This document shows positions 1 through 36,704 of a stretch of 41,807 nt of DNA, piece by piece. A program made the translations under genes and the position numbers. Within the stretch, counting starts at the first letter, position 1, and each line of letters opens with the position of its first letter. The DNA lies in contig CALWTQ010000030.1 in assembly GCA_944384505.1 (NCBI GenBank), positions 1-41,807 of the forward strand, read 5' to 3'. The notes beneath the pieces were generated by a model. That model ran no database searches. It saw nothing but the letters and a program-made list of their open reading frames with translations, and was not told where the DNA came from. The DNA is from an uncultured Mediterraneibacter sp. Its GTDB lineage: Bacteria; Bacillota; Clostridia; Lachnospirales; Lachnospiraceae.

Positions 1-540
1 TCAAGATTTTCAGCGGATTCCTCCAAAGTCACATCTCCCGGCTGTCCCCTTCCCCAGAAAGTATTCTCAAACCATCCCCTCCGCTTCCTGCGCATCTCCT
101 GTCGGAAATGTTACTGCCCTAAACAGGCTGAGACGTACAACTGGCGCGGCTTGTAGGCTTTCGGCTGTGAAAGCTTTCCGGCCGCGCCTGCTTCTCGCAG
201 CAGCTATATATTCACTGACTCCCAACCTGAAAAAGCCCAGAAAACAGCCCCATTTCGAGAAAAATTCTGCGGGGATGGAGGACGGCGACGGGCGCCTTCG
301 GAAGGGGATTAGGAAAACTTGAAGCTGCGGCTGCGGATGTCAGGACAGGAGGGGAGATTGTCTGAGCGAAGCGAGTTGCTCCCCTCCTGTCCTTGCATCT
401 AATCCGCAGACGCAGCTTCTTAGTTTCCCTTATCCCCTGTAGCGAAGCCCTGAGCCGTCCTCCATCCCCGCAGAATACGTCTTGGCAAAGGTACTGTTTT
501 CGGACGTTTTGCAAAAGGACGTTAGTGAACTTTATAGCTG
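1..540 (+). repeat. Composite palindromic repeat, copy A (left part cut by window edge)
   Basis: This is the right two thirds of the dispersed repeat. Positions 1-130 are the 3' arm of palindrome 1 and 131-200 the spacer with a GGCGCGGC/GCCGCGCC hairpin. Positions 201-540 are a complete palindrome 2 ending in ...GTTAGTGAACTTTATAGCTG. Palindrome 2 contains a perfect 23-bp stem (264-286 with 454-476) and a perfect 14-bp apical stem (343-356 with 379-392) around a 22-nt loop at 357-378. Positions 234-540 are identical to 11551-11857 in copy B. Short reading frames inside it are by-products of the inverted arms and I do not call them genes. Confidence 0.93.
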
Positions 541-8566: not shown

Positions 8567-9499
8567 CTATTTCTTTTTCTTTGCAAGATTTTCCTGAACT
8601 CTCTTGTACAGCTCCTGAGCCGCATTGTATCCCATCTGCTTCTGCCTGTGGTTAACAGCGGCGGATTCTACGATAACCGCCAGATTTCTTCCCGGACGGA
8701 TCGGAATGCTGTGGCATACCACTTTGTTTCCCAGAAACTCCGTATATTCCTCCTCCAGTCCGAGCCTGTCGTATTCTTTCTCCCTGCTCCAGTCCTCCAG
8801 CGTAATCACCAGGTCAATGTTCTGAGTCTCCCTGACACTCTGCACACCAAACATGGACTTGACGTCCACAATACCGATTCCGCGAAGCTCAATAAAATGC
8901 TTTGTAATGTCCGGGGCAGATCCCACCAGAGTCTCATCGCTTACTTTCCGTATTTCCACAACGTCGTCTGTCACAAGACGGTGGCCTCTCTTTATCAGTT
9001 CAAGTGCCGCTTCGCTTTTTCCGATGCCGCTCTCTCCCATGATCAGCACGCCTACACCATATACATCAACCAGCACACCGTGAATCGAGATGCACGGCGC
9101 CAGCCGCACGTTCATCCACCGGATGATCTCAGCCGTAAAGTCTGACGTCTGCTTTGCTGTATTAAATACAGGAATCCCGTTCTCCGTCGCTATGCCAAGG
9201 AACTCATCCTCCGGCGCTATCCCCCTGCAGAATACAATGCAGGGAATCGGATTATTGAGAAGCTTGTTAAATATCTCTATTTTTCTTTCATGGGCCAGCG
9301 TCTGAATGTATTTATACTCTACATTGCCGATGATCTGAACCCGGCTTGAATCAAAATGGTCAAAAAAGCCCGCGAGCTGCAGCGCCGGACGGTTAATGTC
9401 AGGCACATTTACCTCCTTCTCAACCATATCCACTTCCGGATTAAGGCTTTTCAAATCCATTTTCTCAACAATTTCGCTTAATCTGATTCCTTGTCCCAT
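8567..9499 (-). CDS. hprK: HPr kinase/phosphorylase
   Basis: A 310-aa bifunctional enzyme that phosphorylates or dephosphorylates Ser46 of HPr. It is the sensor step of carbon catabolite repression in Firmicutes. The N-terminal domain (about 1-130) is followed by the kinase domain with Walker A GESGIGKS (155-162). The HPrK signature around RGIGIVDVKSMFG is clear. The family-typical Lys-rich C-terminus ends AKKKK. It sits 41 bp after uvrC and 28 bp before the ROK kinase on the same strand, so the three are probably co-transcribed. Confidence 0.96.
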   Translation of the reverse strand: MGQGIRLSEIVEKMDLKSLNPEVDMVEKEVNVPDINRPALQLAGFFDHFDSSRVQIIGNVEYKYIQTLAHERKIEIFNKLLNNPIPCIVFCRGIAPEDEFLGIATENGIPVFNTAKQTSDFTAEIIRWMNVRLAPCISIHGVLVDVYGVGVLIMGESGIGKSEAALELIKRGHRLVTDDVVEIRKVSDETLVGSAPDITKHFIELRGIGIVDVKSMFGVQSVRETQNIDLVITLEDWSREKEYDRLGLEEEYTEFLGNKVVCHSIPIRPGRNLAVIVESAAVNHRQKQMGYNAAQELYKRVQENLAKKKK

Positions 9500-9540
9500 A
9501 GATTTTCTCCTTCCTGGCTTCTGCCCATAACATCATATCA

Positions 9541-11391
9541 CTAATGAAAAAATTTGTATACTGATTCCGCTGCCCTTTCATTCATAGAGGGGATTTGCGT
9601 CAGTTCTTCCACGCTGGCCGCCCGAATATCATCCAGACTCAGATACCGGCGCATCAGAGCCTTTCTCCTGGCCGGCCCGATCCCCTCAATATCATCCAGA
9701 ATAGAATGTACCTGACCTTTGCCGCGGAGCTGTCGATGGTACTCAATGGCAAATCTGTGCGCTTCATCCTGGATCCTTGTAATCAGGTGGAAGGCCTCAG
9801 AAGTGCGGTCAATAGGAATTTCCTCATTCTGATAATACAGCCCTCTCGTTCTGTGGTGGTCATCCTTGACCATGCCGCACACTGGAATATTCAGGTGGAG
9901 GCTGTCCAAAACCTCCAGCGCCACATTTACCTGGCCTTTTCCTCCGTCCATCAGGATCAGATCCGGAAATGCAGTGAATTTCCCCATTTCAGAGTTTTCT
10001 TCCCGTTCCTTCAGGCCATGTGTAAATCTTCTGGTGAGCACTTCTCTCATACTCCCGTAATCATCCGCGCCTTTGATCCCCTTGATTTTAAATTTGCGGT
10101 AATCATTGCGCTTTGGCTTTCCCTTCTCATAGACAACCATAGAACCCACGGACTCAAATCCATTCGTATTAGAGATATCATAAGCCTCCATCCGCACAAT
10201 CTCACCTGTGCCAAGAAGGGCGGCAATCTCTTTTACCGCGCCGATTGTCCGGCCTTCCTCCCTCTTGAGGCGCTCCTTGTCTTTGCTCAGGACAAGCCTC
10301 GCGTTCTCTGCGGCAAGCTCTACCAGTTTTTCCTTTGTCCCTTTCTTCGGGATGCGCAGGGAAACTTTCTGGCCCCGCTTCGCCGTCAGCCATGTCTCCA
10401 GAAGCTCATGTTCCTCCACATCCGCCTGAAGCATAAGTTCCCCCGGGATATACGGAGTTCCCGCGTAATACTGCTTAATAAAGCTGTCCAGGATCTCCGG
10501 AGTTGTCTCCCCCTTTGAAATCCTGAGATAAAAATGATCCCTCCCGATGAGGCGCCCGCCCCGGATAAAGAATACCTGAACAACTGCGTCTTCTCCCTCA
10601 GATGCGGCCGCCAGCACATCCCGGTCCTCTCCGCTGGAGTCCGTGATCTTCTGTTTCTGAGCCACTTTCTTAACGCTGTTAATCTGTTCACGGTACTCAA
10701 TCGCCCTCTCGAATTCCAGCGCTTCTGACGCGGCCTCCATCTTCTCTTCCAGTTCTTTCAGAATACTGTCGTAGTTTCCGTTCAGAAAGCGGATCACCTC
10801 ATCGATACGCTTTCTATATTCCTCCTGGGAAATGTACCCCTGGCAGGGAGCGTCACACTGTTTGATGTGATAATTCAGGCAGGGCCGTTCATTGCCGATA
10901 TCCCTCGGCAGGTTCCTCCGGCAGCTTCTCACATGATAAAGCTTGTGGATCAGATCAATCGTGTCCCTCACAGCCTGGGTACTTGTATACGGACCAAAAT
11001 ACCTTGCTTTGTCCTTCACCATCCTGCGTGCCAGAATCACCCGTGGAAACGGCTCGCCTGTAGTCACCTTGATAAACGGATATGCTTTGTCATCCATAAG
11101 CATCGTATTGTATTTCGGCCGGTGTTCTTTGATCAAATTACACTCAAGGACAAGCGCCTCCAGCTCCGAGTCCGTCACAATGTACTCAAACCTGCGGATA
11201 TGCGTCACCATCTGCTCAATCTTAACGCCCTTGTTCCGGCTGCTCTGGAAATACTGCCTGACACGGTTTTTCAGACTGATCGCTTTTCCCACATAAATAA
11301 TGTGATCCTTCTCATCATGCATAATATACACCCCGGGACGCCCGGGGAGTTTTTTCAGTTCTTCCTGTATATCAAAATTATTGCTTTCCAT
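9541..11391 (-). CDS. uvrC: UvrABC system endonuclease UvrC
   Basis: A 616-aa nucleotide excision repair nuclease that makes the incisions on either side of damage recognised by UvrA/UvrB. Domains are the GIY-YIG nuclease (about 12-95, with PGVYIM and IYVGKA), a UVR motif near 205-235, the UvrC RNase H-like nuclease with AYDISNTNG, and C-terminal helix-hairpin-helix repeats. I chose the ATG at 11391. A TTG 12 codons upstream (11427) has no ribosome site and would add an odd hydrophobic segment. The ATG also lacks a Shine-Dalgarno sequence and follows a TATAAT by 7 nt, so the message may be leaderless. Confidence 0.95.
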
Positions 11392-11398
11392 GAAACAT

Positions 11399-11427
11399 AT
11401 TATACAGGGAAGCACATAGAAAAGCAA
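11399..11427 (-). promoter_or_regulatory. Predicted promoter of uvrC-hprK-glcK, possibly giving a leaderless mRNA
   Basis: On the minus strand, TTGCTT (11422-11427), a 17-bp spacer and TATAAT (11399-11404). Only 7 nt separate the -10 box from the uvrC ATG, so transcription would start at about the A of the start codon. Repeat B ends 27 bp upstream. Confidence 0.45.
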
Positions 11428-11454
11428 AGGGAAAAGAAAATATAAGTTGCAGTT

Positions 11455-11857
11455 CAGCTATTTAGCGCACTAACATTTCCTGTGACTTACGTCCGAAAGC
11501 GGAGCGGATGTTTTGCGACAGCTATATAGTCACTGACTTCCGATTTGTGAAGCCCAGAAAACAGCCCCATTTCGAGAAAAATTCTGCGGGGATGGAGGAC
11601 GGCGACGGGCGCCTTCGGAAGGGGATTAGGAAAACTTGAAGCTGCGGCTGCGGATGTCAGGACAGGAGGGGAGATTGTCTGAGCGAAGCGAGTTGCTCCC
11701 CTCCTGTCCTTGCATCTAATCCGCAGACGCAGCTTCTTAGTTTCCCTTATCCCCTGTAGCGAAGCCCTGAGCCGTCCTCCATCCCCGCAGAATACGTCTT
11801 GGCAAAGGTACTGTTTTCGGACGTTTTGCAAAAGGACGTTAGTGAACTTTATAGCTG
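11455..11857 (+). repeat. Composite palindromic repeat, copy B (palindrome 1 mostly deleted)
   Basis: It starts with the standard CAGCTATTTAGCGCACTAAC end. After 64 bp of palindrome 1 the sequence jumps directly into palindrome 2 (11519-11857), so about 285 bp of palindrome 1 plus the spacer hairpin are missing compared with copies C and D. Positions 11551-11857 are identical to 234-540 of copy A. The element lies between the uvrC promoter and the ftsH terminator. No flanking target-site duplication is visible. Confidence 0.93.
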
Positions 11858-11865
11858 AACTATTA

Positions 11866-11902
11866 AAACGCCGCCCTCTCCTGACTGGATCGGACGGCGT
11901 TT
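11866..11902 (-). terminator. Terminator after ftsH
   Basis: AAACGCCG (11866-11873) pairs with CGGCGTTT (11895-11902). Read on the minus strand it ends in GTTTTAAT, 11 bp after the ftsH stop codon. Confidence 0.7.
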
Positions 11903-11912
11903 CTTTTTAAAT

Positions 11913-13970
11913 TCATGGTTCTTCCGTTTTCGGCGGCTCTGATGGTGCGGGTGCATCTTCCGTGTGCTCCACCGGTCTCATCGCGATGCGTTCCTTCTCC
12001 TCTTTCGGCTCTTCACCGCCCTCCTCCGGCTCAGGAATTCCCTTGACCTCGCGGAAAATCTTCATAAACTCTTTTCCGGTAATTGTCTCTTTCTCAATAA
12101 GGAAAGCGGCAATCTTATCAAGAGCGTCCCTGTTCTCGGCAAGAAGTCTCTTCGCCTCCGCATATGCTCCTTTTAGCATCTTCATGACTTCCTCGTCTAT
12201 CTCACTTGCTGTAGCTTCCCCGCAGTTTAATACTGCCCTGCCGTCCAGATAACGGTTCTGGATGGACTCAAGCCCCATCAGCCCAAAGCGGTCAGACATT
12301 CCGTACTGTGTAATCATGGCCCTGGCTGTCTTTGTCGCCTGCTCAATATCATTTGCGGCTCCGGTCGTCACAGTCTCAAAGACAAGTTCCTCCGCGGCAC
12401 GGCCTCCCAGAGCCACTACAATCATTGCCTCCAGCTCTTTCTTCGTATTTAAGAACTTCTCCTCCTCCGGCGTCTGCATTACATATCCAAGGGCGCCCAT
12501 AGTCCTCGGAACAATGGTGATCTTCTGCACCGGCTCGGTATTCTTTTGAAGGGCCGTCACCAGAGCGTGTCCCACTTCGTGATAAGACACAATTCTCCGC
12601 TCTTCTTTGCTCATGATACGGTCCTTCTTCTCTTTGCCGACAAGAACGACCTCCACTGCTTCAAAAAGATCCTTCTGACTCACAACCTGGCGCCCGTGTT
12701 TTACCGCGTTAATCGCCGCCTCGTTGATCATATTTGCAAGGTCAGATCCCACTGCGCCGGATGTAGCCAGAGCAATCGCTTCCAGATCCACGCTCTCATC
12801 CATGCGCACGTCTTTGGCGTGGACTTTCAGTATATCAACCCTTCCCTTCAGGTCAGGCTTATCCACAATGATCCTCCGGTCAAACCGTCCCGGGCGCAGA
12901 AGCGCCGGATCCAGGATCTCCGGCCGGTTCGTTGCGGCCAGGATGAGGAGTCCCTTATTCGTGTCAAATCCATCCATCTCCGCCAGGAGCTGGTTTAATG
13001 TCTGCTCCCTCTCATCATTTCCGCCAAGCGCACTGTCACGCGTCTTACCGATCGCATCAATCTCATCGATAAATACGATGCACGGAGCCTGCTGCTGGGC
13101 CTGTTTAAACAAATCGCGGACACGGGACGCTCCGACGCCCACGTACATCTCCACAAACGCGGATCCCGACAGGGAGAAGAAAGGCACCTTTGCCTCTCCG
13201 GCCACAGCCTTGGCCAGAAGTGTCTTACCGGTTCCAGGAGGTCCGACCAGAAGGGCGCCCTTCGGCAGTTTTGCTCCGATTCCGCTGTATTTTCCCGGAT
13301 TATGCAGGAAATCCACCACTTCCTGCAGGGATTCCTTCGCCTCATCTTCTCCTGCCACATCCTGGAAAGTAACGCCCGTCTCCTTCTCCATGTACATCTT
13401 GGCATTGCTCTTCCCAATGCCCATCATTCCGCCGCCTTTGCTCATCTTTCTCATCAGGTAAGACAGCAGGGCGACCATCAGCCCGATCGGGAGGATGAGT
13501 GTGACAAACAGTTCAAAAAAGAGCTGGCCCATTGTATCCTGTACTTCGCCCTGAAACTCCACTCCCGCTTCATCCAGCGTCTGAACGAGAGAGTAGTCAT
13601 TTACATAAGCTGTATAGTAATCCGGGCTGCTCTCTGTCCCTGAACTGCCTGACCTGCTCTCAATCTGATTCATAATATCAGAAAAACTTCCGCTCTGGCT
13701 TCCGGAGTCCGTCTGATCCATTATCTGCTCCGCGCGCGCTTCGTCTGTCAGAGTAATGTAGATGCGGTTACTGTTTAACGTAACCTCTTTGACGTCTCCA
13801 TCCTCAACCAGGCTCAGAAATTTATCATATGATATCTCTTCCGGGCCCGATCCCCTCATAAGAGAGAACAATCCCATAACAACAAAAGTGACCAGCAGGG
13901 TCGTGATGAGAATGACACCCCAGCCCTGCCGGTTGTTGTTCGGATTATTCTTATTATTTTTGTTATCCAT
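11913..13970 (-). CDS. ftsH: ATP-dependent zinc metalloprotease FtsH
   Basis: A 685-aa membrane-anchored AAA+ protease that degrades misfolded membrane proteins and short-lived regulators. An Asn/Lys-rich N-terminus precedes TM1 (about 17-38). The extracytoplasmic domain is followed by TM2 (about 145-165). The AAA module has Walker A GPPGTGKT (243-250) and Walker [10 protein letters not shown]. The zinc motif is HEVGH (464-468). The acidic, Pro/Glu-rich C-terminus is of ordinary length. The start at 13970 is chosen because AGGAGG lies 6-11 nt upstream; an earlier in-frame start would add a spurious hydrophobic stretch. It is divergent from the DUF1846 gene, with separate promoters. Confidence 0.97.
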
Positions 13971-14019
13971 TCTTTTCCTCCTATGCCCTGTCAGCGTCAG
14001 TATGCACGACGCTATTACC

Positions 14020-14048
14020 ATTATAAGTACAGGTTTTACATAAATCAA
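14020..14048 (-). promoter_or_regulatory. Predicted sigma-A promoter of ftsH
   Basis: TTGATT (14043-14048), a 17-bp spacer and TATAAT (14020-14025) on the minus strand, 49 bp before the ftsH start. I see no CIRCE-type or other stress operator. Confidence 0.65.
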
Positions 14049-14067
14049 TAAAAAGATTATGAAAATA

Positions 14068-14097
14068 TTGTAAAAGCGTGAGTTTTTATAGTATACT
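14068..14097 (+). promoter_or_regulatory. Predicted promoter of the DUF1846 gene
   Basis: TTGTAA (14068-14073), an 18-bp spacer and TATACT (14092-14097), back to back with the ftsH promoter. Confidence 0.5.
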
Positions 14098-14166
14098 GAG
14101 TACGAAATATGTCTGAAAATGATTACTCTGAACAGTAACTAAAAATATGTAAGTGGGGAATGAAAA

Positions 14167-15639
14167 ATGAAAATCGGTTTTGACAATGAAAAGTATCTGA
14201 AAACACAGTCTGAACATATCCGAAACCGGATCGATAAGTTCGACAACAAACTCTACCTGGAATTCGGCGGGAAACTCTTCGACGATTATCACGCATCGCG
14301 GGTACTTCCCGGATTTGCGCCGGACAGCAAGCTCCGAATGTTAAAGGAGTTAAGCAGCCAGGCGGAAATTGTTATCGTCATCAGCGCAAAAGATATCGAA
14401 AAAAATAAAATCCGGAGTGATCTTGGGATCACTTACGACACGGACGTGCTCCGCCTGATTGATACTTACCGCGAGCAGGGGTTGTATGTCGGAAGTGTTA
14501 CAATCACTCAGTTTTCAGGTCAGGAAAGCGCTCTTCTTTTCAAAAACCGGCTGGAAAACCTGAACATCCCCGTTTATCTCCATTATATCATCCCGGGATA
14601 TCCGTCCAATATTCCTCTGATCATAAGTGACGAGGGATATGGAAAAAATGATTATATCCAGACAACCCGCCCTCTTGTGATCGTTACCGCGCCCGGCCCC
14701 GGAAGCGGGAAAATGGCCACCTGTCTCTCCCAGCTCTACCATGAGCACAAACGTGGAATCCGTGCAGGATACGCCAAATTTGAGACATTCCCGATCTGGA
14801 ATCTCCCGCTCAAGCATCCGGTCAATCTGGCATATGAAGCTGCCACTGCGGATTTAAATGATGTAAACATGATTGACCCTTTCCACCTGGAAGCTTACGG
14901 AGAAACAACCGTCAACTATAACCGGGATGTGGAAATTTTCCCCGTTCTCAATACTATTTTTGAGAAAATCTATGGAGAAAGCCCGTACAAATCGCCAACT
15001 GACATGGGCGTCAACATGGCGGGGAACTGTATCTGCGATGATGAGACATGCCGGGAAGCGTCTAAACAGGAAATCATACGGCGCTATTATGCCGCTTTGA
15101 ATTCCCTTGCCAAAGGCGACAGTTCTGATAAGGAAGCCCAGAAAATCGAGCTGCTTATGAATCTGGCCGGCATCACTGCCGCGGATCGCAGATCTGCCGT
15201 AAAAGCTTTGGAGCGCGCGAAAGAGACAGGCGGCCCGGCTGCTGCTCTGGAGCTGGATGACGGAAGAATCATCACAGGTAAGACCACCAACCTTCTGGGT
15301 GCTTCAGCTGCGCTTCTGCTGAATGTTTTAAAAGAACTGGCAGGCATTGACCATGCTGCTCACATCATCTCCCCTGAGTCCATTGAGCCGATTCAGAAGC
15401 TGAAAGTGGATTACCTGAAAAGTAAAAATCCAAGACTGCACACAGATGAGGTCCTCATCGCCCTGTCTGCCAGCGCAGCTTTAAACCCCGACGCGGGTCT
15501 CGCCCTCTCCCAGCTTCCGAAGCTCGAAGGATGCCAGGCCCACACCTCGGTAATGCTCTCAGATGTGGATATAAAGATTTTCAAAAAATTGGGTGTGCAG
15601 CTTACGTGCGAAGCAGTTTATGAGCATACCCTTTACTAA
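14167..15639 (+). CDS. DUF1846 (UPF0371) family protein
   Basis: A 490-aa cytoplasmic protein recognisable as DUF1846 from its start (MKIGFDNEKYLKTQSEHI) and from the segment RPLVIVTAPGPGSGKMATC. The latter contains a P-loop-like APGPGSGK at residues 175-182, so nucleotide binding is plausible. The family's reaction has not been assigned to my knowledge. Further recognisable stretches are KFETFPIWNLPLKHPVNLAY and DMGVNMAGNCICDDE, the latter with clustered Cys/Asp residues that could hold a metal (inference). A purine-rich AGTGGGGA (14152-14159) precedes the ATG by 7 nt. Repeat C begins 2 nt after the stop codon and there is no separate terminator. Confidence 0.92.
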   Translation: MKIGFDNEKYLKTQSEHIRNRIDKFDNKLYLEFGGKLFDDYHASRVLPGFAPDSKLRMLKELSSQAEIVIVISAKDIEKNKIRSDLGITYDTDVLRLIDTYREQGLYVGSVTITQFSGQESALLFKNRLENLNIPVYLHYIIPGYPSNIPLIISDEGYGKNDYIQTTRPLVIVTAPGPGSGKMATCLSQLYHEHKRGIRAGYAKFETFPIWNLPLKHPVNLAYEAATADLNDVNMIDPFHLEAYGETTVNYNRDVEIFPVLNTIFEKIYGESPYKSPTDMGVNMAGNCICDDETCREASKQEIIRRYYAALNSLAKGDSSDKEAQKIELLMNLAGITAADRRSAVKALERAKETGGPAAALELDDGRIITGKTTNLLGASAALLLNVLKELAGIDHAAHIISPESIEPIQKLKVDYLKSKNPRLHTDEVLIALSASAALNPDAGLALSQLPKLEGCQAHTSVMLSDVDIKIFKKLGVQLTCEAVYEHTLY

Positions 15640-15641
15640 AA

Positions 15642-16402
15642 CAGCTATTTAGCGCACTAACATTTCCTGTGACTTACGTCCGGAAGCGGAGCGGATTGTT
15701 TGCGATACGTATTCTGTGAAAGGAGACAGCCGGAAGACGTTCCGTTCCGGAATCCGAAAAATCTAACAGGCCGAAGAGATGTTTAAAGGCAAAGCGGCGC
15801 TCCGGGCAACTCGCTCCGCTCAGACAATCCCTGCGCGCCGCTTAACAACATCTCTCCGCCCTTAAGCTTTTCAGCGGATTCCTCCAAAGTCACATCTTCC
15901 GGCTGTCTCCTTCCCCAGAAAGTTTACTCAAACCGTCCGCTCCGCTTCCTGCGTATTTCCAGACGGAAATGTCATTGCCCTAAACAGGCTGTAAAGCGCA
16001 ACTGGCGCGGCTTGAGGGATTTCCTCTATGAAAGCTTTCCGGCCGCGCCGACTGTTTACAACAGCTATATAGTCACTAACTTCCTAATTGAAAAACCCAG
16101 AAAACAGCCCCATTTCGAGAAAAATTCTGCGGGGATGAAGGAGGGCGATGGATGACTTCGGAAGGGTATTAGTGAAACTTAGAGTTCCAGTGAGGGACGT
16201 TAGGGCTGACGGTGGAATTGTCTGAGCGTAAGCGAGTTGTCCACCGTCAGTCCTTGCATTTAGTCCGTCACTGGAACTCTTAGTTTCACTTATATCCCTG
16301 GAGCGGAATCCAGAGCCATCCTTCATCTCCGCAGAATACGTCTCAGAAATAGCCCCTGTTTTCGGACGTTTTGCATTCGGACGTTAGTGAACTTTATAGC
16401 TG
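15642..16402 (+). repeat. Composite palindromic repeat, copy C (complete, 761 bp)
   Basis: A complete copy and the best reference. Palindrome 1 covers 15642-15991, from CAGCTATTTAGCGCACTAAC to CTAAACAGGCTG, with its apical loop at 15807-15828. A spacer holds the hairpin GGCGCGGC (16004-16011) with GCCGCGCC (16042-16049). Palindrome 2 covers 16062-16402, with a 14-bp apical stem (16203-16216 with 16240-16253) and loop 16217-16239. The two loops are near-perfect reverse complements of each other. It lies between the DUF1846 stop (2 bp away) and the pyrG promoter (12 bp away). No protein-coding capacity is convincing. Confidence 0.95.
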
Positions 16403-16414
16403 AAGATAAAATTG

Positions 16415-16443
16415 TTGTAATTCTTTTGATTCGGGTGTATACT
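16415..16443 (+). promoter_or_regulatory. Predicted sigma-A promoter of pyrG
   Basis: TTGTAA (16415-16420), a 17-bp spacer and TATACT (16438-16443), starting 12 bp after repeat C. It predicts a leader of about 107 nt. Confidence 0.6.
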
Positions 16444-16457
16444 TATAAGGTATTTTT

Positions 16458-16531
16458 ACAGTCTGACTGCAGAGGATTGTCGGATCGCAACGGAGCGTTT
16501 TCTTTCCTTTGGTCAGACTGTACTCTTTTTT
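16458..16531 (+). promoter_or_regulatory. Leader attenuator (intrinsic terminator) upstream of pyrG
   Basis: A perfect 10-bp stem (16458-16467 with 16512-16521) encloses a 44-nt loop and is followed by a T-run at 16526-16531, all before the pyrG ribosome site. In Bacillus subtilis pyrG is controlled by a leader terminator that low CTP relieves through repeated G addition at the transcript start. Here a pyrimidine-rich stretch (16498-16510) lies 5' of the closing arm, but I do not see a clear GGGC transcript start. Attenuation is likely; the trigger is inferred. Confidence 0.72.
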
Positions 16532-16557
16532 AGGAATAATTACAGGAGGCACTATTT

Positions 16558-18165
16558 ATGGCAGTTAAATATGTTTTTGTCACCGGCGGTGTTGTATCCG
16601 GTCTCGGGAAAGGGATCACAGCCGCGTCACTGGGTCGGCTTTTAAAGGCGCGAGGATATACCGTCACCATGCAGAAGTTCGATCCGTACATCAATATTGA
16701 TCCCGGGACAATGAATCCGGTTCAGCACGGGGAGGTCTTTGTCACTGACGACGGCGCTGAGACAGACCTGGATCTCGGACACTACGAGCGTTTTATCGAT
16801 GAGAGTCTTACCAAGAATTCCAATGTAACCACAGGAAAGATCTACTGGTCTGTTCTTCAGAAAGAGCGGCGCGGCGACTTCGGAGGGGGAACCGTACAGG
16901 TCATCCCTCACATTACCAACGAGATCAAAAGCCGGTTCTACAGGAATCCGGCCGCGGAAAATACAGAGATAGCCATCATCGAGGTGGGCGGTACAGTGGG
17001 CGATATCGAGAGCCAGCCTTTCCTGGAGTCAATCCGTCAGTTCCAGCACGAAAAGGGCCGGGAGAACGTTATTCTTATCCATGTAACGCTCATTCCTTAC
17101 CTGCGCGCTTCCCAGGAAATGAAAACCAAACCGACCCAGGCCAGCGTCAAGGAGCTCCAGGGTATGGGGATCCAGCCGGATATCATTGTATGCCGCTCCG
17201 AGTATCCTCTGAGCACAGATATGAAAGATAAAATCTCTCTGTTCTGTAATCTGCCGGCCAGCCATGTGCTTCAGAACCTGGACGTGGAGTATCTCTACGA
17301 AGCTCCTCTGGCTATGGAAAAAGAGCATCTTGCCCAGGTTGTCTGTGAGTGTCTCCATCTGGACTGTCCGGAACCGGATCTGAAAGAGTGGGCCGATATG
17401 GTGGACAACCTGCGCCATCCCACCCAGGAAGTCACCATAGCTCTGGTCGGAAAATATATCCAGCTGCACGACGCCTACATCAGCGTTGTGGAGGCGCTCA
17501 AACATGGAGGGATCTACAGCCACACTACTGTAAATATTAAATGGATCGATTCTGAGACTGTAACCGCCGAAAATGTGGAGGAACTCTTCTCAGATGTAAG
17601 CGGCGTCCTTGTTCCCGGCGGATTCGGGCACCGCGGCATAGAAGGAAAGATTGAAGCAATCCGCTATGCGCGCACTCACGGCATTCCATTCCTGGGGCTG
17701 TGTCTCGGCATGCAGCTTGCCATCGTAGAATTTGCCCGGGACGTATTGGGATATAATGACGCAAACAGCATGGAGCTGGATCCGTCTACCACACATCCTG
17801 TCATTCACATTATGGAGGATCAGATCGGTGTTGAGGACATCGGGGGAACTCTTCGCCTCGGTTCCTATCCGTGTATCCTCAAAGACGGTTCCCTTGCCCT
17901 TAAGCTCTATGGCGCAAAAGAAATCCACGAACGGCACCGCCATCGCTACGAGGTCAACAATGATTTCCGTGAAGTTCTGGAGGATCACGGCATGTCCCTG
18001 TGCGGGCTCTCTCCTGACAGCCGGATCGTTGAGATGATTGAGATCCCGGAACATCCCTGGTTCATCGCGACTCAGGCTCACCCCGAGCTTAAATCCAGGC
18101 CTAACCGCCCTCACCCTCTGTTCAGGGGCTTCGTTGAAGCAGCAATGCAGGCAGCGGAGAATTAA
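16558..18165 (+). CDS. pyrG: CTP synthase (glutamine hydrolysing)
   Basis: A 535-aa enzyme that converts UTP to CTP using ATP and glutamine, the last step of pyrimidine nucleotide synthesis. The N-terminal amidoligase domain begins [16 protein letters not shown] and includes [14 protein letters not shown]. The C-terminal glutamine amidotransferase domain has nucleophile Cys382 in GLCLGMQ, with His508 and Glu510 in HPEL. Length and motifs are complete. AGGAGG (16543-16548) precedes the ATG by 9 nt. It is a single-gene unit with leader attenuator and downstream terminator. Confidence 0.97.
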
Positions 18166-18178
18166 ACGAAGATCAAAT

Positions 18179-18217
18179 GAGGCAGATCTGCGCACACCCG
18201 TGCAGCAGCTCTGCCTC
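18179..18217 (+). terminator. Terminator after pyrG
   Basis: GAGGCAGA (18179-18186) pairs with TCTGCCTC (18210-18217), followed by a T-rich stretch that runs into the 3' end of the convergent PAP2 gene. Confidence 0.65.
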
Positions 18218-18219
18218 TG

Positions 18220-18816
18220 TTATTCTTCATTTTTCTTCTGTTCTTTACTTCTTTCCTGTCTGCGTTTCTCTTTAAACGCCATATACTCTTTCACCGCTTT
18301 GCTTCCGGCCCACCCTGCCAGCAGGCCCACTGCCGCTCCAGCAATCACATCACTCGGATAATGTACTCCCACATAGAGACGGGAGAGCGAGATCAGCGTC
18401 GCAAGGATCAGAAACGGAACTCCTTTTTTCCCCGGCAGCATCCTGTATATTGCATATGCAGCCGCAAAAGAAGCGCATGTATGACCTGACGGGAATGAAA
18501 AATCATGCTGCTTTTCAATCATCAGGATAAGCTCCTCCATCCGGTCATAAGGCCGCATCCGCGCCACTGCATTCTTCACTATCACGTTTGTAATCAAGGC
18601 TCCTGCCGCCAGTCCGCCCAGAGCTGCGGCTCCCGCCTGCCGCGTCCGCTTTGGGATCAGCATCAGTACAGCGAGCAGGATCCACACCATTCCTCCGTCC
18701 CCCAGATGAGTCACACTTGTCCAGAACCCATCCAGCCAGGGCTGCCGGATATTTTCCTGAATAAACAGCAATATACTTTCATCAAAATTCTGTATGGTAT
18801 GAAATATTTCTGTCAC
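18220..18816 (-). CDS. PAP2-family phosphatase, membrane-bound
   Basis: A 198-aa integral membrane protein with all three PAP2 motifs: KNAVARMRP (81-89), PSGH (Ser110-His112) and SRLYVGVHYPSD (Ser145, His152). Such proteins dephosphorylate lipid phosphates, for example undecaprenyl diphosphate or phosphatidic acid; the substrate cannot be told from sequence. About five membrane helices are visible, and the C-terminus is highly charged (KEKRRQERSKEQKKNEE). I set the start at GTG 18816 because AGGAGG (18823-18828) lies exactly 6 nt upstream. A TTG six codons earlier has no such site. It overlaps the 3' end of dus by 35 bp, implying co-transcription. Confidence 0.88.
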   Translation of the reverse strand: MTEIFHTIQNFDESILLFIQENIRQPWLDGFWTSVTHLGDGGMVWILLAVLMLIPKRTRQAGAAALGGLAAGALITNVIVKNAVARMRPYDRMEELILMIEKQHDFSFPSGHTCASFAAAYAIYRMLPGKKGVPFLILATLISLSRLYVGVHYPSDVIAGAAVGLLAGWAGSKAVKEYMAFKEKRRQERSKEQKKNEE

Positions 18817-19747
18817 AGACGTCCTCCTGCGCAAACAATTCTTCTATTACATCTTCATAGATATAACACTTTTCCGATTTTTTGATCTTTTTCGCATATT
18901 TTTTGTAATTAGTAAACGCAGGCGCCAGATAGGACCAGAACTCCTTCATCTTATAAAGGATTGTCCGATCTCCCGACATCTCCTGAGAGTACGCTTCATA
19001 CAGCATATCATGGAACCGGCGCAGCTCAGCCTTATCCGCCCGTTTCCCGCCTCGGATCCGCCTGGCAAGAGACGGATCTGCAAGCACGCCTCTTCCCATC
19101 ATCATCCGGTCCAGGTCCGGAAATCTTTTTTTCATCCTGCGGTAATCTTCCACGGATGTAATGTCCCCATTGTAGCAGACCGGACTGCCGCTCATGGCAA
19201 GCGCCTCGCCAAACACATTCAGATCAGGTGTATTTTTATAAAAATCCTTCTGAACTCTGGGGTGGATAATCAGTTCTGTCATTGGATATCTGTTGTAAAT
19301 CTCCATAAGGCGGCCAAATTCATCCGGACTCTCCACGCCAATCCGGGTTTTTACAGAAATTTTCAGCTGGCATCTCCCGAAGATCTCTTCCAGAAACCGA
19401 TCCAGCCCGTCCGGATCTGAGAGAAAACCCGCTCCCCTCTTCTTTGTCACCACAGTCTTAGAAGGACAGCCCAGATTCAGGTTAATCTCCCCATATCCGT
19501 ATTCTCCAAGCTTCGCGGCAGTACGGAGAAAGTCCTCCGCGCGATTCGTCAGAATCTGCGGCACTGCTTCCATCCCCTTATTGTGATCCGGCCGGATATC
19601 TTTCTTTTCCCGCGCACTAAAATGCCCCATCTGGTTCGGGCTGATAAAAGGGATAAAATATCGGTCAAAGCCGCCAAAACACTCATGCACCGCATTCCGG
19701 TATATCCAGCCGGTGATCCCCTCCAGAGGGGCCAGATACAGTCTCAT
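18782..19747 (-). CDS. dus: tRNA-dihydrouridine synthase
   Basis: A 321-aa FMN enzyme of the Dus family that reduces uridine to dihydrouridine in tRNA D-loops. The TIM-barrel start is MRLYLAPLEGITG. The catalytic Cys94 lies in NLNLGCPSKTVVTKKRGAG. The FMN-binding segments KTRIG, CYNGDI and MMGRGVLADPSL are present. AGGAGA (minus strand, 19755-19760) precedes the ATG by 7 nt. It is the first gene of a two-gene unit with the overlapping PAP2 gene. Position specificity within tRNA is not predictable here. Confidence 0.94.
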   Translation of the reverse strand: MRLYLAPLEGITGWIYRNAVHECFGGFDRYFIPFISPNQMGHFSAREKKDIRPDHNKGMEAVPQILTNRAEDFLRTAAKLGEYGYGEINLNLGCPSKTVVTKKRGAGFLSDPDGLDRFLEEIFGRCQLKISVKTRIGVESPDEFGRLMEIYNRYPMTELIIHPRVQKDFYKNTPDLNVFGEALAMSGSPVCYNGDITSVEDYRRMKKRFPDLDRMMMGRGVLADPSLARRIRGGKRADKAELRRFHDMLYEAYSQEMSGDRTILYKMKEFWSYLAPAFTNYKKYAKKIKKSEKCYIYEDVIEELFAQEDVCDRNISYHTEF

Positions 19748-19842
19748 AAATCATTCTCCTGTCTTTTATCATTCGCAGTAAACTGCCGATTATCTCCCCT
19801 GAACAAAGAGCTATCCTCTTCCATTCAAAAGAACGTATGCTT

Positions 19843-19871
19843 ACCTTATTACAAACAACTTCTCCTGTCAA
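19843..19871 (-). promoter_or_regulatory. Predicted promoter of dus
   Basis: A consensus TTGACA (19866-19871 on the minus strand), a 17-bp spacer and a weak -10 TAAGGT (19843-19848), 20 bp from the left end of repeat D. Confidence 0.45.
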
Positions 19872-19891
19872 GCTGCAATATATCGGGTACC

Positions 19892-20653
19892 CAGCTATTT
19901 AGCGCACTAACATTTCCTGTGACTTACGTCCGGAAGCGGAGCGGATGTTTTGTGATACGTATTCTGTGGAAGGAGACAGCCGTAAGACGTTCCGTTCCAG
20001 AATCCGGAAAATCTAACAGGCCGAAGAGCTGTTTAAGTGCAAAGCGGCGCTCCGGGCAACTCGCTCTGCTCAAACAATCCCTGCGCGCCGCTTAACAACA
20101 TCTCTCCGCCCCTAAGATTTTCAGCGGATTCTTCCAAAGTCACATCTTCCGGCTGTCTCCTCCCTCAGAAATTTTACTCAAACCGTCCGCTCCGCTTCCT
20201 GCGCATTTCCAGACGGAAATGTCATTGCCCTAAACAGGCTGTAAGGCGCAACTGGCGCGGCTTGGAGACTTTCTGATGCAAAAGATTTCCAGCCGCGCCT
20301 GCTTCTCGCAGCAGCTATATATTCACTGACTTCCGTCCTGAAAAAGCCCAGAAAACAGCCCCATTTCGAGAAAAATTCTGCGGGGATGAAGGATGGCGAT
20401 GGATGACTTCGGTAGGGTATTAGTGAAACTTAGAGTTCCAGAGAGGGACGTTAGGGCTGACGGTGGAATTGTCTGAGCGTAAGCGAGTTGTCCACCGTCA
20501 GTCCTTGCATTTAGTCCGTCACTGGAACTCTTAGTTTCACTTATATCCCTGGAGCGGAATCCAGAGCCATCCTTCATCTCCGCAGAATACGTTTTAGGAA
20601 TCGGCCCTGTTTTCGGATGTTTTGCAAAAGGACGTTAGTGAACTTTGTAGCTG
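19892..20653 (+). repeat. Composite palindromic repeat, copy D (complete, 762 bp)
   Basis: A complete copy with the same layout as copy C. Palindrome 1 is 19892-20241, the spacer hairpin is GGCGCGGC (20254-20261) with GCCGCGCC (20292-20299), and palindrome 2 is 20312-20653. Palindrome 2 belongs to the same stem subfamily as C and carries the paired changes that turn the A/B outer stem GATGGAGGACGGC into GATGAAGGATGGC on one arm and its complement on the other. The palindrome 1 loop has two changes relative to C. It lies between the divergent dus and ABC transporter promoters, about 20 bp from each predicted -35. Confidence 0.95.
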
Positions 20654-20673
20654 TTGAACTGTTCATATAAAGA

Positions 20674-20702
20674 TTGTCAATCTGAATTCTATGTGCTAAG
20701 AT
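20674..20702 (+). promoter_or_regulatory. Predicted promoter of the ABC exporter
   Basis: TTGTCA (20674-20679), a 17-bp spacer and TAAGAT (20697-20702), with a TGC extension before the -10. Confidence 0.55.
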
Positions 20703-20800
20703 TGTTGTATTCAAAAACACTTTAGAAATGTCCGGGGTTTCCGGCGTATTTTCAATATCATCACCGATACTTTACCCCAGACAGAAGGAGAGACATCATT

Positions 20801-22522
20801 ATGCATACTTTACGGAAATTCATTGACTACTATGCGCCGTACAAAGCGGTCTTTTTTATTGACCTTCTCTGCGCCGCCTTTATAAGCATTGTGGATCTGG
20901 CGTATCCTCAGATCCTGCGCACATTGACAGCCACTTTGTTTACGAAGGACAGCGGCACTATCCTTCACGCACTCCCCCTGATTGCAGCTGTGCTTTTGGT
21001 TATGTATATTATCCAGAGTCTCTGCAAATATTATGTCAGCTACCAGGGACATATGATGGGAGCAAATATGGAGCGTGACATGCGCCAGCAGCTTTTTGAC
21101 CATTATGAGAAGCTGTCCTTTTCCTACTACAGCAAAAATAATTCGGGCCAGATGATGAGCAAGCTTGTATCTGACCTGTTCGATATTGCGGAGTTTGCCC
21201 ATCACGGGCCTGAGAACCTGTTTATTTCTCTGGTGAAGATTGTAGGATCCTTTATCTTCCTGTTTCTGATTAACTGGCGTCTGGCGCTTCCCATGGCGGT
21301 GCTTGTTCTCTGTATGCTGATCTTCTCCATCCGGCAGAACGGGCGGATGCAGGAGACTTTTATGGAGAATCGCAGAAAGATCGGGGATGTAAACTCAAGC
21401 CTCCAGGACACTCTGGGAGGAATCCGTGTAGTACAGTCTTTTGCAAACGAAGATATTGAAAGAGAGAAATTCAAAAAAAGCAACCATGCATTTCTTATTT
21501 CAAAGAAAAATAATTACAGCTGTATGGGAAGCTTTATGGGCTGGAACCTGTTCTTCCAGGGTATGATGTATCTCGTCACTCTGGTATTCGGCGGCTATCT
21601 CATCGCGCACGGTCTGATGGAGGTGGGCGATCTTGCCATGTACGCCCTGTATATCGGGATTTTTATCAGTCCGATTCAGATTCTGGTGGAATTAATCGAG
21701 ATGATGCAGAAAGGCCTTGCCGGTTTCCGGCGTTTCCTTGACGTGATGGAAACAGAGCCGGAGATTGTTGACGCGCCCGACGCGCGCCCTCTTGAAAACG
21801 TGAAGGGGCGGGTCTGCTATGAGGACGTCTCTTTCCACTACAGTGACGACAACACGCCGGTACTCTCTCATGTTTCCTTTGAAATCCCTGCCGGGAAGTC
21901 GATTGCCCTGGTAGGACCCTCCGGCAGCGGCAAAACCACGATCTGTTCCCTGCTGCCCAGATTTTACGATGTGACAGGAGGCAAGATCACTATCGACGGC
22001 AGAGACGTCCGCACACTGCAGCTTAAGAGCCTGAGAAGCCAGATCGGCATGGTACAGCAGGACGTTTACCTGTTTTCCGGGACAATCCGGGACAATATCG
22101 CCTACGGAAAGCCCGGAGCCTCCATGGATGAAATCATTGAGGCCGCAAAGCGCGCCAATATTCACGACTTTATTCAAGAGCTTCCGGATGGATATGACAC
22201 CTTTGTCGGAGAGCGCGGTGCCAGGCTTTCCGGCGGTCAGAAACAGCGGATCTCCATTGCCCGCGTATTTCTGAAAAACCCGCCTATCCTGATACTGGAC
22301 GAAGCTACCAGCGCGCTGGATAATGAGAGCGAGCGCTGGATTCAGCAAAGCCTGGAAGAACTGTCGAAAAACCGCACGACTATTACCATCGCTCACCGAC
22401 TCTCCACTATCCGCAACGCAGATGAGATCATCGTCATAACGGAGGATGGAATCGCCGAGCGCGGCACTCACGAAACCCTCCTGGAAAAGGGCGGGATCTA
22501 CGCGCATTACTACAATTTGTAA
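20801..22522 (+). CDS. ABC exporter half-transporter (fused membrane and ATPase domains)
   Basis: A 573-aa ABC transporter with an N-terminal six-helix exporter domain (about 1-310) fused to an ATPase domain. The ATPase shows Walker A GPSGSGKT (372-379), signature LSGGQKQR, Walker B ILILDEATS (Asp500, Glu501) and the H-loop AHRLST. It resembles multidrug/lipid (MsbA, YfiB/YfiC, LmrA) exporters. Substrate cannot be inferred, and it could act as a homodimer because no partner half-transporter is adjacent. AAGGAG precedes the ATG by about 10 nt. It is a single-gene unit, convergent with sigE. Confidence 0.93.
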   Translation: MHTLRKFIDYYAPYKAVFFIDLLCAAFISIVDLAYPQILRTLTATLFTKDSGTILHALPLIAAVLLVMYIIQSLCKYYVSYQGHMMGANMERDMRQQLFDHYEKLSFSYYSKNNSGQMMSKLVSDLFDIAEFAHHGPENLFISLVKIVGSFIFLFLINWRLALPMAVLVLCMLIFSIRQNGRMQETFMENRRKIGDVNSSLQDTLGGIRVVQSFANEDIEREKFKKSNHAFLISKKNNYSCMGSFMGWNLFFQGMMYLVTLVFGGYLIAHGLMEVGDLAMYALYIGIFISPIQILVELIEMMQKGLAGFRRFLDVMETEPEIVDAPDARPLENVKGRVCYEDVSFHYSDDNTPVLSHVSFEIPAGKSIALVGPSGSGKTTICSLLPRFYDVTGGKITIDGRDVRTLQLKSLRSQIGMVQQDVYLFSGTIRDNIAYGKPGASMDEIIEAAKRANIHDFIQELPDGYDTFVGERGARLSGGQKQRISIARVFLKNPPILILDEATSALDNESERWIQQSLEELSKNRTTITIAHRLSTIRNADEIIVITEDGIAERGTHETLLEKGGIYAHYYNL

Positions 22523-22541
22523 ACTTTGCGCGACAATTCAG

Positions 22542-22605
22542 TCATCTGTCGTCAGCAGACGGATTTATGCCCCCATAAAGCTCCGTCAGCTGACGCCGCA
22601 GATGA
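22542..22605. other. Long hairpin without a U-tract between the ABC exporter and sigE
   Basis: Nested pairings 22542-22548/22599-22605, 22550-22563/22582-22595 and 22564-22569/22574-22579, with loop CCCC, give about 26 base pairs. Neither side has a T-run. It may still act as a shared end point or a processing/stabilising hairpin for the two converging transcripts. Confidence 0.65.
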
Positions 22606-22644
22606 GCTGAGCTCCCGCCAATGAGTAAAACAGCGGAGCAGGAC

Positions 22645-23385
22645 TCATTCATAGCGGACCATCTCTCTTTTTAACCTCTGCATGATCTTTTTCTCTAGTC
22701 TGGATATGTAAGACTGAGAGATCCCCAGCAGATCCGCCACCTCCTTCTGAGTTTTTTCTTTTCCCTCCGGATTATCCAGCCCAAAACGCATTCGGACAAT
22801 CATCTTTTCCCTGCTGTTCAGTTTATTCAGCGCCTTTATAAGCAGCTTTCTCTCCGCTTCATTTTCCAGATCCCGGTAGATCGTGTCCTCCTCGGTTCCA
22901 AGAATATCTGACAGAAGAAGTTCGTTTCCATCCCAGTCCACATTGAGTGGTTCGTCAATAGACACCTCCAGTTTTGTCTTGCTGTTTCTCCGAAGATACA
23001 TAAGGATTTCATTCTCAATACATCTTGAGGCATAGGTTGCCAGCTTAATCTTCTTTGCAGGATTGAATGTATTGATTGCCTTGATCAGTCCGATCGTACC
23101 GATTGAAATCAGATCCTCCACTCCCACCCCAGTATTGTCGAACTTCTTTGCAATGTATACCACAAGCCGGAGGTTATGTTCAATCAGTGTCTTTTTCGCC
23201 TCCTCTTCCCTATCCGTTCCCAGACTCTGAATCATTTCATTTTCCCGCGCCCCTTCCAGCGGAGGCGGCAGCACCTCTGCCCCGCCTATATAATGAACGT
23301 CCCTTCCGCCCCCGAATATCAGGCTTTTGATATCCGGGAATACCCTCAGTTGAAACGGATGTGGACCTGCTGCTTTCATTATCAT
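22645..23385 (-). CDS. sigE: Sporulation sigma factor SigE (pro-sigma-E)
   Basis: A 246-aa early mother-cell sigma factor. The first ~30 residues form the pro-sequence, ending just before [13 protein letters not shown], which matches the region where SpoIIGA cleaves in B. subtilis. Region 2 follows ([41 protein letters not shown]), then the SigE-specific [17 protein letters not shown], and region 4 with the helix-turn-helix [26 protein letters not shown] (minus strand, near 23393-23399) precedes the first ATG by 8 nt. It lies 65 bp after spoIIGA. sigG, the usual next gene, is absent from this window. Confidence 0.96.
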
Positions 23386-23412
23386 AATTATCTCCTCCTC
23401 TTTCTTAACATT

Positions 23413-23436: not shown

Positions 23437-23450
23437 CCATCCCGGCCGCT

Positions 23451-24248: not shown

Positions 24249-24287
24249 GCCTCACCCTCTTTCTGCTCCGGAAACGATCCGGGTCTT

Positions 24288-36230: not shown

Positions 36231-36704
36231 GGCTATAAAGTTCACTAACTTCCGGATGAGAAACGTCCGAAAACAGGGGCTATTTCTGAGACATATTCTG
36301 CGGGGATGGAGGATGAGGACGGGCTTCGCTCCAGGGGATAAGTGAAACTAAAAGCTGCGGCGACAGACTAAATACAAGGACTGACGGTGGACAACTCGCG
36401 TATCCGCTCAGACAATTCCACCGTCAGCCCTAACGTCTGCCGCCGCAGCTTCAAGTTTCGCTAATCCCCTTCCGAAGGCACCCGTCCTCATCCTCCATCC
36501 CCGCAGAATTTTTCTCGAAATGGGGCTGTTTTCTGGGCTTATCAAGCCGGAAGCCAGTGAATATATAGCTTCCGTAAGTGTGGCGCGGCCGGAAAGCTTT
36601 CGCAGTCGAAGGCCCACAAGCCGCGCCAACTTCGCGGTTCAGCCTATTTAGGCAATGGCACTTCCGGATGTGTTCCCCGAAAAGAGTTATTACCTAAATA
36701 GCTG
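36231..36704 (-). repeat. Composite palindromic repeat, copy F (inverted, palindrome 1 reduced)
   Basis: It lies in the opposite orientation to A-D. Positions 36231-36564 or so are palindrome 2, starting GGCTATAAAGTTCACTAAC. The apical stem is of the C/D type (GGACTGACGGTGGA) while the middle stem resembles A/B, so this copy is a mosaic. The GGCGCGGC-type spacer hairpin lies near 36581-36627. Palindrome 1 is reduced to about 65 bp (to 36704) that still forms a short palindrome, CAGCTATTTAGG with CCTAAATAGGCTG, without the large loop. It sits between the mraZ promoter and the small membrane protein gene. Confidence 0.9.

What the first reader, a model, noticed from the sequence alone, without database searches (positions are those of the whole stretch)
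15642..16402. Large dispersed repeat made of two oppositely oriented palindromes, seven copies in 42 kb
Seen directly: copies at 1-540, 11455-11857, 15642-16402, 19892-20653, 25807-25934, 36231-36704 and 41731-end. Full copies (C, D) are about 760 bp. Palindrome 1 (350 bp) and palindrome 2 (about 341 bp) both start from CAGCTAT..AG..CACTAAC-type ends pointing outward, joined by a spacer with its own GC-rich hairpin. Read inward from either end the two palindromes share blocks such as ACGTATTCTG, so the element is an inverted duplication of one hairpin unit. It has no credible ORF, and all copies are intergenic. I do not recognise it as ERIC, BIME, Correia or another named family. Inference: a non-autonomous hairpin-based mobile element or a family of large structured RNAs.
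Basis: partly seen in the sequence, partly recalled or inferred. Interest (0 to 1): 0.88.

Follow-up and report, generated by a model that had tools for sequence, protein, structure and literature searches.

The report
Giant paired DNA hairpins between genes
A 760-letter piece of non-coding DNA made of two giant hairpins has spread to roughly 180 places in this bacterium's genome, and the short sequence capping each hairpin recurs on quite different hairpins in several bacterial phyla, which suggests an unrecognised kind of mobile DNA that acts as a folded single strand.

Summary
The 761-bp element (P1 hairpin 350 bp, small spacer hairpin, P2 hairpin 341 bp) has 7 copies in the window and 367 outer ends in the 3.95-Mb assembly, about 180 copies. 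Ends are exact, without target duplication. At copy C, all 14 relatives that I could read in the listing lack it. Stem pairs covary (P1 21 of 93, P2 26 of 97).

The main discovery is the cap. Both hairpins end in TGTCTGAGCGNAGCGAGTT, on opposite strands. The exact cap, searched across genomes, tops hairpins with different stems in about six phyla (116 of 132 score at least 10, against 7% of random positions), often as (-,+) pairs like this element. Stems carry G.A internal-loop modules far above expectation, only on the cap strand. The cap holds GCGNAGC, a known very stable DNA mini-hairpin.

Best explanation: a non-autonomous mobile element whose working form is folded single-stranded DNA, in function like a giant REPIN/BIME. 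Mobility, structure and strand preference are shown; ssDNA rather than RNA, and the enzyme, are inferred. It lacks the GTAG foot, small size and RAYT linkage of REPs. No Rfam match; ten paper searches of an open-licence library showed no description.

The parts
15642..16402 (+). full-length element, copy C
   Evidence: ends CAGCTATTTAGCGC...GAACTTTATAGCTG; absent at this site in relatives
15642..15991 (-). hairpin P1 (350 bp), cap on the minus strand
   Evidence: covariation
15807..15827 (-). cap of P1, TTGTCTGAGCGGAGCGAGTTG
15992..16061 (.). spacer with its own GC-rich hairpin
16062..16402 (+). hairpin P2 (341 bp), cap on the plus strand
   Evidence: covariation
16219..16238 (+). cap of P2, TGTCTGAGCGTAAGCGAGTT (four-base GTAA apical loop)
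19892..20653 (+). full-length element, copy D
1..540 (+). copy A, cut by the contig start
11455..11857 (+). copy B, 403-bp derivative: left end joined to P2
25807..25935 (-). copy E, truncated P2 arm
36231..36704 (-). copy F, reversed; P2, spacer and a shortened P1
41731..41807 (+). copy G, left end of P1, cut by the contig end

Best explanation
It is a non-autonomous mobile DNA element, in effect a giant REPIN/BIME: two long hairpins in opposite orientation around a small spacer. SHOWN: about 180 copies with exact ends and no target-site duplication; presence at a site where relatives lack it; hairpins kept by compensatory changes; the cap strand folds better than its complement; the cap and G.A internal-loop modules recur on hairpins with different stems in several phyla, often as divergent pairs. 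INFERRED: the selected form is single-stranded DNA, exposed for instance at a replication fork, folded into hairpins capped by a GNA mini-hairpin; an enzyme acting in trans on single strands, of HUH or similar type and not yet identified, recognises cap and loops on one strand, cuts near the foot and joins the element elsewhere. Stems are free to diverge as long as they pair, which explains different stems under one cap.
For: Copy number: 367 outer ends (<=1 mismatch), 0 for the reversed control; 181 caps (21-letter pattern, <=3 mismatches), control 0. TSD: 29 full-length copies with clean ends, 2-bp matches 4 against 3.9 expected, 3-bp 0 against 0.2; 79 mixed rows likewise. Site C: in 14 of 14 relatives whose two flanks I could read on one contig in the truncated listing the gap is 17-239 bp, each about what is left without the element, against 769-931 bp here; 10 of these were fetched and aligned. 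0 of 49 overlapping loci from relatives over this region carry the ends. Covariation: P1 21 of 93 pairs (43 sequences), P2 26 of 97 (51 sequences), 91% of cells Watson-Crick. Strand: isolated mismatches G.T 196 against A.C 87 on the cap strand; cap strand folds better in 111 of 171 hairpins of other genomes (p=5e-7), 42 of 50 of G306 and 93 of 94 of G000. Modules there: GA/GA 22 of 56 2x2 loops (1.6 expected), GNA/GA 46 of 59 3x2 (3.0), GNA/GNA 17 of 27 3x3 (1.2); complement strand 0 of 77; hairpins elsewhere in the same loci 0 of 34. Neighbouring caps <=600 bp: (-,+) 29 of 29 in fetched G000 loci, 7 of 7 in G306, 16 of 23 in named loci. DNA form: a GNA or GNNA loop on >=2 G-C pairs is an exceptionally stable, nuclease-resistant DNA mini-hairpin (PMC4686876, passages); GNA loops cap many Streptomyces telomere palindromes (PMC7205883, passages). 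Orientation to genes: upstream gene co-directional with the cap strand in 61 of 112 scored.
Against: No mobilising gene found. Of Y1 transposase (PF01797) loci, 0 of 30 fetched (of 43 matches, 12 genomes of the window's order) and 1 of 30 fetched (of 33 matches, 26 other cap genomes) have a cap within the locus (about 1.5 kb either side); 12 of those 26 genomes have no Y1 match. Caps beside Y1 genes in G000 (2 of 5) look like IS200 copies inserted into the element. No autonomous copy seen. No strand bias between the two halves of the G306 chromosome (47 of 91; origin position assumed). ssDNA against RNA is not settled: G.T over A.C also suits RNA; on pairs predicted on both strands G.T to A.C is only 67:49 in G000; 14 of 18 four-base apical loops read GNRA; the ViennaRNA runs on cap oligonucleotides did not form the mini-hairpin alone under either parameter set. 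Bias: G-N-A was fixed in the query that fetched the named loci; GNA or GNNA loops are 47 of 71 in G000 and 9 of 19 in other species of the genus. Several loci share a genus (Marinobacter above all), so counts are not independent. 29 of 154 caps in named loci fall inside a length-called ORF of 200 aa or more, perhaps spurious ORFs of GC-rich genomes, not checked. Sites B and D did not align well enough for the same statement as C.
Confidence: 0.6

Rival explanations
1. A family of structured RNAs: the cap strand is transcribed, folds into the long hairpin and acts in trans or on neighbouring transcripts; copies spread by any means.
For: Strand preference, G.T over A.C 196:87 and covariation. 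Tandem sheared G.A loops and GNRA tetraloops also occur in RNA (recalled); 14 of 18 four-base apical loops are GNRA.
Against: No Rfam match. Orientation ignores gene direction. P1 and P2 have caps on opposite strands, so one transcript shows only one cap correctly. G.T to A.C is only about 2:1. The three-base GNA cap loop is the known stable DNA form (PMC4686876, passages).
Confidence: 0.2
2. A true REPIN/BIME family moved by a RAYT (TnpA_REP), enlarged and without the usual tetranucleotide.
For: Two hairpins in inverse orientation with a linker, high copy, strand-specific hairpin. Bacteroidetes RAYT subclass 2.6 and class 3 are listed with 'atypical secondary structures' (PMC6006769, passages and section 13). 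One RAYT-like ORF (E=8e-5) lies about 120 bp from a cap (L205), one between two caps in Marinobacter (L340).
Against: Y1 genes are not linked to caps (0 of 30, 1 of 30 fetched); 12 of 26 cap genomes have no PF01797 match. The RAYTs of G000 and of L340 are flanked by short repeats unlike the cap (by eye). No GTAG at the foot.
Confidence: 0.12
3. Hairpins that spread and stay paired through host replication and repair alone (template switching, quasipalindrome correction), with no dedicated enzyme; the cap is kept because it makes hairpins form or survive.
For: Stems diverge but stay complementary; palindromy of some G306 hairpins runs into their flanks (by eye); the mini-hairpin alone resists nucleases (PMC4686876, passages).
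Against: Exact shared ends in G000, about 180 dispersed copies, a cap conserved beyond the GCGNAGC core (TGTCT and GAGTT, though the query asked for them), and patchy presence: exact cap in 4 of 199 genomes of the phylum sample, G000 included.
Confidence: 0.08

Closest known systems
REP / BIME / REPIN sequences with TnpA_REP (RAYT)
   Same: high copy, two hairpins in inverse orientation with a linker, strand-specific single-strand hairpin with mismatches (PMC8266576 passages; PMC6006769 passages and section 13)
   Different: 341-350 bp hairpins here (shorter in some other genera) against 20-65 nt; the conserved part is the tip, not a GTAG foot; no RAYT linkage; one cap across about six phyla
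Integron attC sites and the attC-like OTH-22-1 motif
   Same: folded single-strand DNA sites with variable stems; OTH-22-1 also spans several phyla (PMC8632094 section 27)
   Different: attC is marked by RYYYAAC/GTTRRRY, which the ends here (CACTAAC/GTTAGTG) do not fit; the tip is the variable part in attC (recalled). I did not see the OTH-22-1 figure or alignment.
Streptomyces telomere palindromes
   Same: DNA hairpins, many with GNA loops closed by sheared G-A; compensatory changes in some stems (PMC7205883 passages)
   Different: chromosome ends, not dispersed repeats; some have CTTG loops instead
Palindrome-type bacterial MITEs (Correia/NEMIS, RUP, ERIC, CIR)
   Same: short non-coding mobile repeats between genes (PMC2229807 outline and abstract)
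   Different: several have TSDs and known IS relatives (recalled); their sequences were not compared here

Membership tests
REP/BIME/REPIN | two hairpins in inverse orientation with linker, high copy | tested here: met
REP/BIME/REPIN | GTAG-type tetranucleotide at the hairpin foot | tested here: not met
   feet read CAGCTAT...; no GTAG there
REP/BIME/REPIN | hairpin of about 20-65 nt | tested here: not met
   341 and 350 bp
REP/BIME/REPIN | cognate RAYT gene flanked by the same hairpins | tested here: not met
   0 of 30 and 1 of 30 fetched Y1 loci have caps; own RAYT has a different repeat. 60 of 76 matches were read.
Integron attC | R box GTTRRRY / RYYYAAC at the foot | tested here: not met
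   end sequence CAGCTATNNAGNNCACTAAC
Integron attC | integron integrase (IntI) in the genome | not tested
   no search made
Classical MITE of a DDE insertion sequence | target-site duplication | tested here: not met
   29 full-length copies: matches of 1-5 bp near chance
Classical MITE of a DDE insertion sequence | autonomous IS with the same ends | tested here: inconclusive
   no copy with a transposase inside seen, but one search listed only about 100 of 367 places
Rfam structured RNA | match to a curated covariance model | tested here: not met
   window at gathering score: only a tRNA; copy C at E<=1: none; 10 other cap loci at gathering score: none

The most novel reading that the evidence does not exclude
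A pan-bacterial class of mobile elements whose conserved part is not a gene or a linear site but a folded DNA strand: a GNA mini-hairpin cap and a ladder of sheared G.A internal loops, carried on stems of arbitrary sequence, usually as two divergent hairpins, and handled by a still unknown enzyme that reads DNA shape.
Probability: 0.45. Interest if true: 0.93.

Novelty: new variant of a known kind. Interest (0 to 1): 0.8.

Why it matters
If the reading is right, folded single-stranded DNA with defined non-canonical motifs is a heritable, selected and spreading object in several phyla, easily missed because its stems share little sequence. The 19-base cap makes the class searchable at once, and the missing enzyme becomes a well-posed target. 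About 180 copies (2-3% of this genome by length, my estimate from copy number) also help to explain where the assembly breaks: in the listing, 23 of contigs C1-C47 have an element end within 750 bp of their start.

Tried and rejected
RAYT/Y1 partner: searched PF01797 in G000, in 12 genomes of the order and in 26 other cap genomes, then looked for caps beside the fetched genes; not supported. Shared neighbour genes: all-against-all of 4388 stop-to-stop segments of 80 aa or more around caps; the 25 largest clusters printed looked like common host families (RND pump in the largest, judged by eye), none a transposase that I recognised. Autonomous copy: two wide-spaced end pairs in G000 held no transposase that I recognised; the paired caps of G119 and G101 have an ordinary-looking gene between them. 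Replication strand bias: my first impression was an artefact of the listing order; the full list has none. TSD: absent. Folding software for DNA against RNA: not decisive. Viral carriers: only 7 contigs, 3 of 7 caps on a hairpin scoring >=7. A control that failed: for the 19-letter cap at up to 3 mismatches in G306 the reversed control also matched 55 times, because the core reads nearly the same backwards; I use only exact and one-mismatch caps there. Papers: ten searches listed no description of the cap or of this element that I recognised; the library holds only openly licensed papers, listings were cut, and the search on sequence strings listed 20 of 167 papers, by title unrelated. In PMC3733652 none of the searched strings or genus names occurs.

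Full report
OBSERVATION. Copies C and D are complete. Each is P1 (350 bp) - 70-bp spacer with a GC-rich hairpin - P2 (341 bp). Both strands of copy C fold far better than shuffles. In G000 (3.95 Mb, 141 contigs) a search with copy C scored 40 of 343 candidates; besides copy C itself it gave 39 stretches of 524-766 bp at 82-93% identity. A pattern for the outer ends gives 367 places with 1 mismatch or fewer and none for the reversed control, so about 180 elements. In that listing (about 100 of 367 places) 23 of contigs C1-C47 have an element end within 750 bp of their start; this window begins and ends inside a copy.

MOBILITY. Boundaries are exact (CAGCTA...TAGCTG) over unrelated flanks. In 29 full-length copies with clean ends the flanking bases match no more than expected (1 bp 13 against 9.0, 2 bp 4 against 3.9, 3 bp 0, 4 bp 1, 5 bp 0); copies with altered end letters were dropped. 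A larger set of 79 rows, in which full elements and single hairpins are mixed, agrees. All 58 genomes of the genus searched match the region 9000-24300. The listing was cut; in 14 relatives I could read both flanks of site C on one contig. Ten have gaps of 17-77 bp where the window has 769-808, and these were fetched and aligned; they were picked because both flanks were visible. Four more (G037, G021, G007, G003) have 178-239 bp where 911-931 stands here and 150-170 would be left without the element. Of 49 overlapping loci from relatives in this region none carries the element's ends, and 2 carry a variant cap of their own. Sites B and D did not align well enough. IS200-like genes lie inside two copies (L256, L257), so the element is probably also a target.

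STRUCTURE UNDER SELECTION. Among 43 P1 and 51 P2 hairpins of G000 (those with 150 bases on both sides of the cap and enough words shared with copy C), 21 of 93 and 26 of 97 consensus pairs show two Watson-Crick pairs that differ on both sides, each in at least two sequences; 91% of cells are Watson-Crick. RNAalifold chose these pairs, so its G.U counts (625 against 69 A.C) are biased. On pairs predicted on both strands G.T to A.C is 67:49. A test on isolated mismatches inside helices, aligned by Watson-Crick pairs only, gives G.T 196 against A.C 87 on the cap strand, 2.0 to 2.5 in each of four sets. The cap strand folds better than its complement in 111 of 171 hairpins of other genomes (L119-L254) and 42 of 50 of G306, the cap being replaced by a neutral loop, and in 93 of 94 of G000 with the cap in place. 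So one strand is preferred, as RNA or ssDNA, which a symmetric cruciform would not give.

THE CAP. Both hairpins end in TGTCTGAGCGNAGCGAGTT (P2 of copy C with GTAA). The 21-letter form has 181 places with up to 3 mismatches in G000, control 0; the exact 19-mer 107. In the order, 14 of 295 genomes, G000 included, match with up to 2 mismatches, against one control match, and some of these matches are not typical caps; all 10 exact caps among the 11 fetched loci sit on hairpins scoring 7 or more. G306 has 64 exact and 29 one-mismatch copies. In a phylum sample the exact cap is in 4 of 199 genomes including G000. Record titles point to Pseudomonadota (Marinobacter, Luteimonas, Stenotrophomonas, Variovorax, Polaromonas, Methylophaga and others), Bacteroidota, Bacillota, Nitrospirota, Fusobacteriota and Desulfobacterota; single titles name Bdellovibrionales and Gastranaerophilales, the latter with no hairpin (score 1) and perhaps chance. 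Of 132 distinct caps, 116 sit on a hairpin scoring 10 or more, against 190 of 2640 random positions; 5 score under 7. Stems differ visibly between genera (by eye, no stem alignment between genera was made).

G.A MODULES. Leaving the cap out, 139 named hairpins (45 bases either side) have 56 2x2 internal loops, 22 of them GA/GA (1.6 expected); 59 3x2 loops, 46 GNA/GA (3.0 expected); 27 3x3 loops, 17 GNA/GNA (1.2 expected). The complement strand gives 0 of 48, 0 of 9 and 0 of 20, and 123 hairpins elsewhere in the same loci 0 of 19, 0 of 9 and 0 of 6. The 11 loci of the order: 3 of 9, 3 of 10, 5 of 8. G306: GA/GA 21 of 25, no 3x2 loops, 0 of 3. G000: 11 of 25, 0 of 18, 9 of 32. These loops were not part of the query, so they are independent support, though many loci share a genus. 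That the G.A pairs are sheared is inference.

PAIRED ARCHITECTURE. Neighbouring caps within 600 bp stand in the order (-,+) in 29 of 29 cases in fetched G000 loci, 7 of 7 in G306 and 16 of 23 in named loci. Of the 7 exceptions 4 are (+,-), all in Luteimonas or another Lysobacteraceae; 2 are (-,-), one of them across a run of N; 1 is (+,+). The common order is that of the element in the window.

DNA OR RNA. The cap contains GC-GNA-GC. GNA or GNNA loops (N any base) on at least two G-C pairs make exceptionally stable, nuclease-resistant DNA mini-hairpins (PMC4686876, passages), and GNA loops with sheared G-A cap many Streptomyces telomere palindromes (PMC7205883, passages). Of 307 distinct caps 248 have GNA and 18 GNNA loops, but the named loci were fetched with G-N-A fixed; in G000 it is 47 of 71, and in other species of the genus, fetched without the cap, 9 of 19, with 6 more adding one C-G pair below a triloop. 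Hairpins ignore gene orientation: in named loci the gene upstream of the cap strand is co-directional in 61 of 112 scored cases (of 154 caps); convergent settings (35) exceed divergent ones (16); 29 of 154 caps fall inside a length-called ORF of 200 aa or more. I favour ssDNA, without proof.

PARTNER. Y1/RAYT was the natural candidate. It is not linked to caps (0 of 30 and 1 of 30 fetched loci), and 12 of 26 cap genomes have no match. No other candidate emerged, and no other enzyme family was searched. The enzyme is the open question.

KNOWN OR NEW. It works like a REPIN/BIME but fails three defining features (Membership tests). No Rfam family matches. Ten paper searches listed no description; the library is partial. 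I call it a new variant of a known kind, with a substantial chance that the cap-and-ladder class is new in itself.

Noticed in passing
window 7259-7468: 12-bp tandem repeats (GGCGGNAATACC type) inside a long ORF (4809-7505); a repetitive protein segment.
   Followed up: no
window 41589-41663 (-): tRNA gene about 70 bp from copy G at the contig end.
   Followed up: no
L256 700-2400, L257 600-2400 (G000 C15, C73): IS200-like transposase genes lying inside the P1 part of two elements, so the element looks like a target for other insertion sequences.
   Followed up: partly
L258 1020-1960 (G000 C50): A RAYT-like gene (255 aa) flanked by a different short palindrome with GGGGACGTAGTAAAAT; an ordinary-looking REPtron in the same genome. 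L270 (G026) looks alike.
   Followed up: partly
L412 1220-3040 (G119); L413 1050-2180 (G101): The only two caps found in G119 (up to 2 mismatches) lie 1.6 kb apart as (-,+) on hairpins 86% identical, either side of one peptidase-like gene; L413 has two same-strand caps (83%) around one small gene. Local hopping or cassette-like bracketing.
   Followed up: partly
L134 3900-4470 (Luteimonas terrae): Two caps in (+,-) order lie inside one nested palindrome of about 550 bp with an inner CCAAAAGAAAC hairpin.
   Followed up: no
L340 1180-2700 (Marinobacter azerbaijanicus): A RAYT with GTCGGATTA-type repeats beside it lies between two cap hairpins in (-,+) order; the only such case in 30 loci.
   Followed up: partly
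L006, L026, L107 element flanks (G000): Short partial copies of the element end (CAGCTATTT / TATAGCTG) sit directly beside some copies, as if copies insert next to older ends.
   Followed up: no
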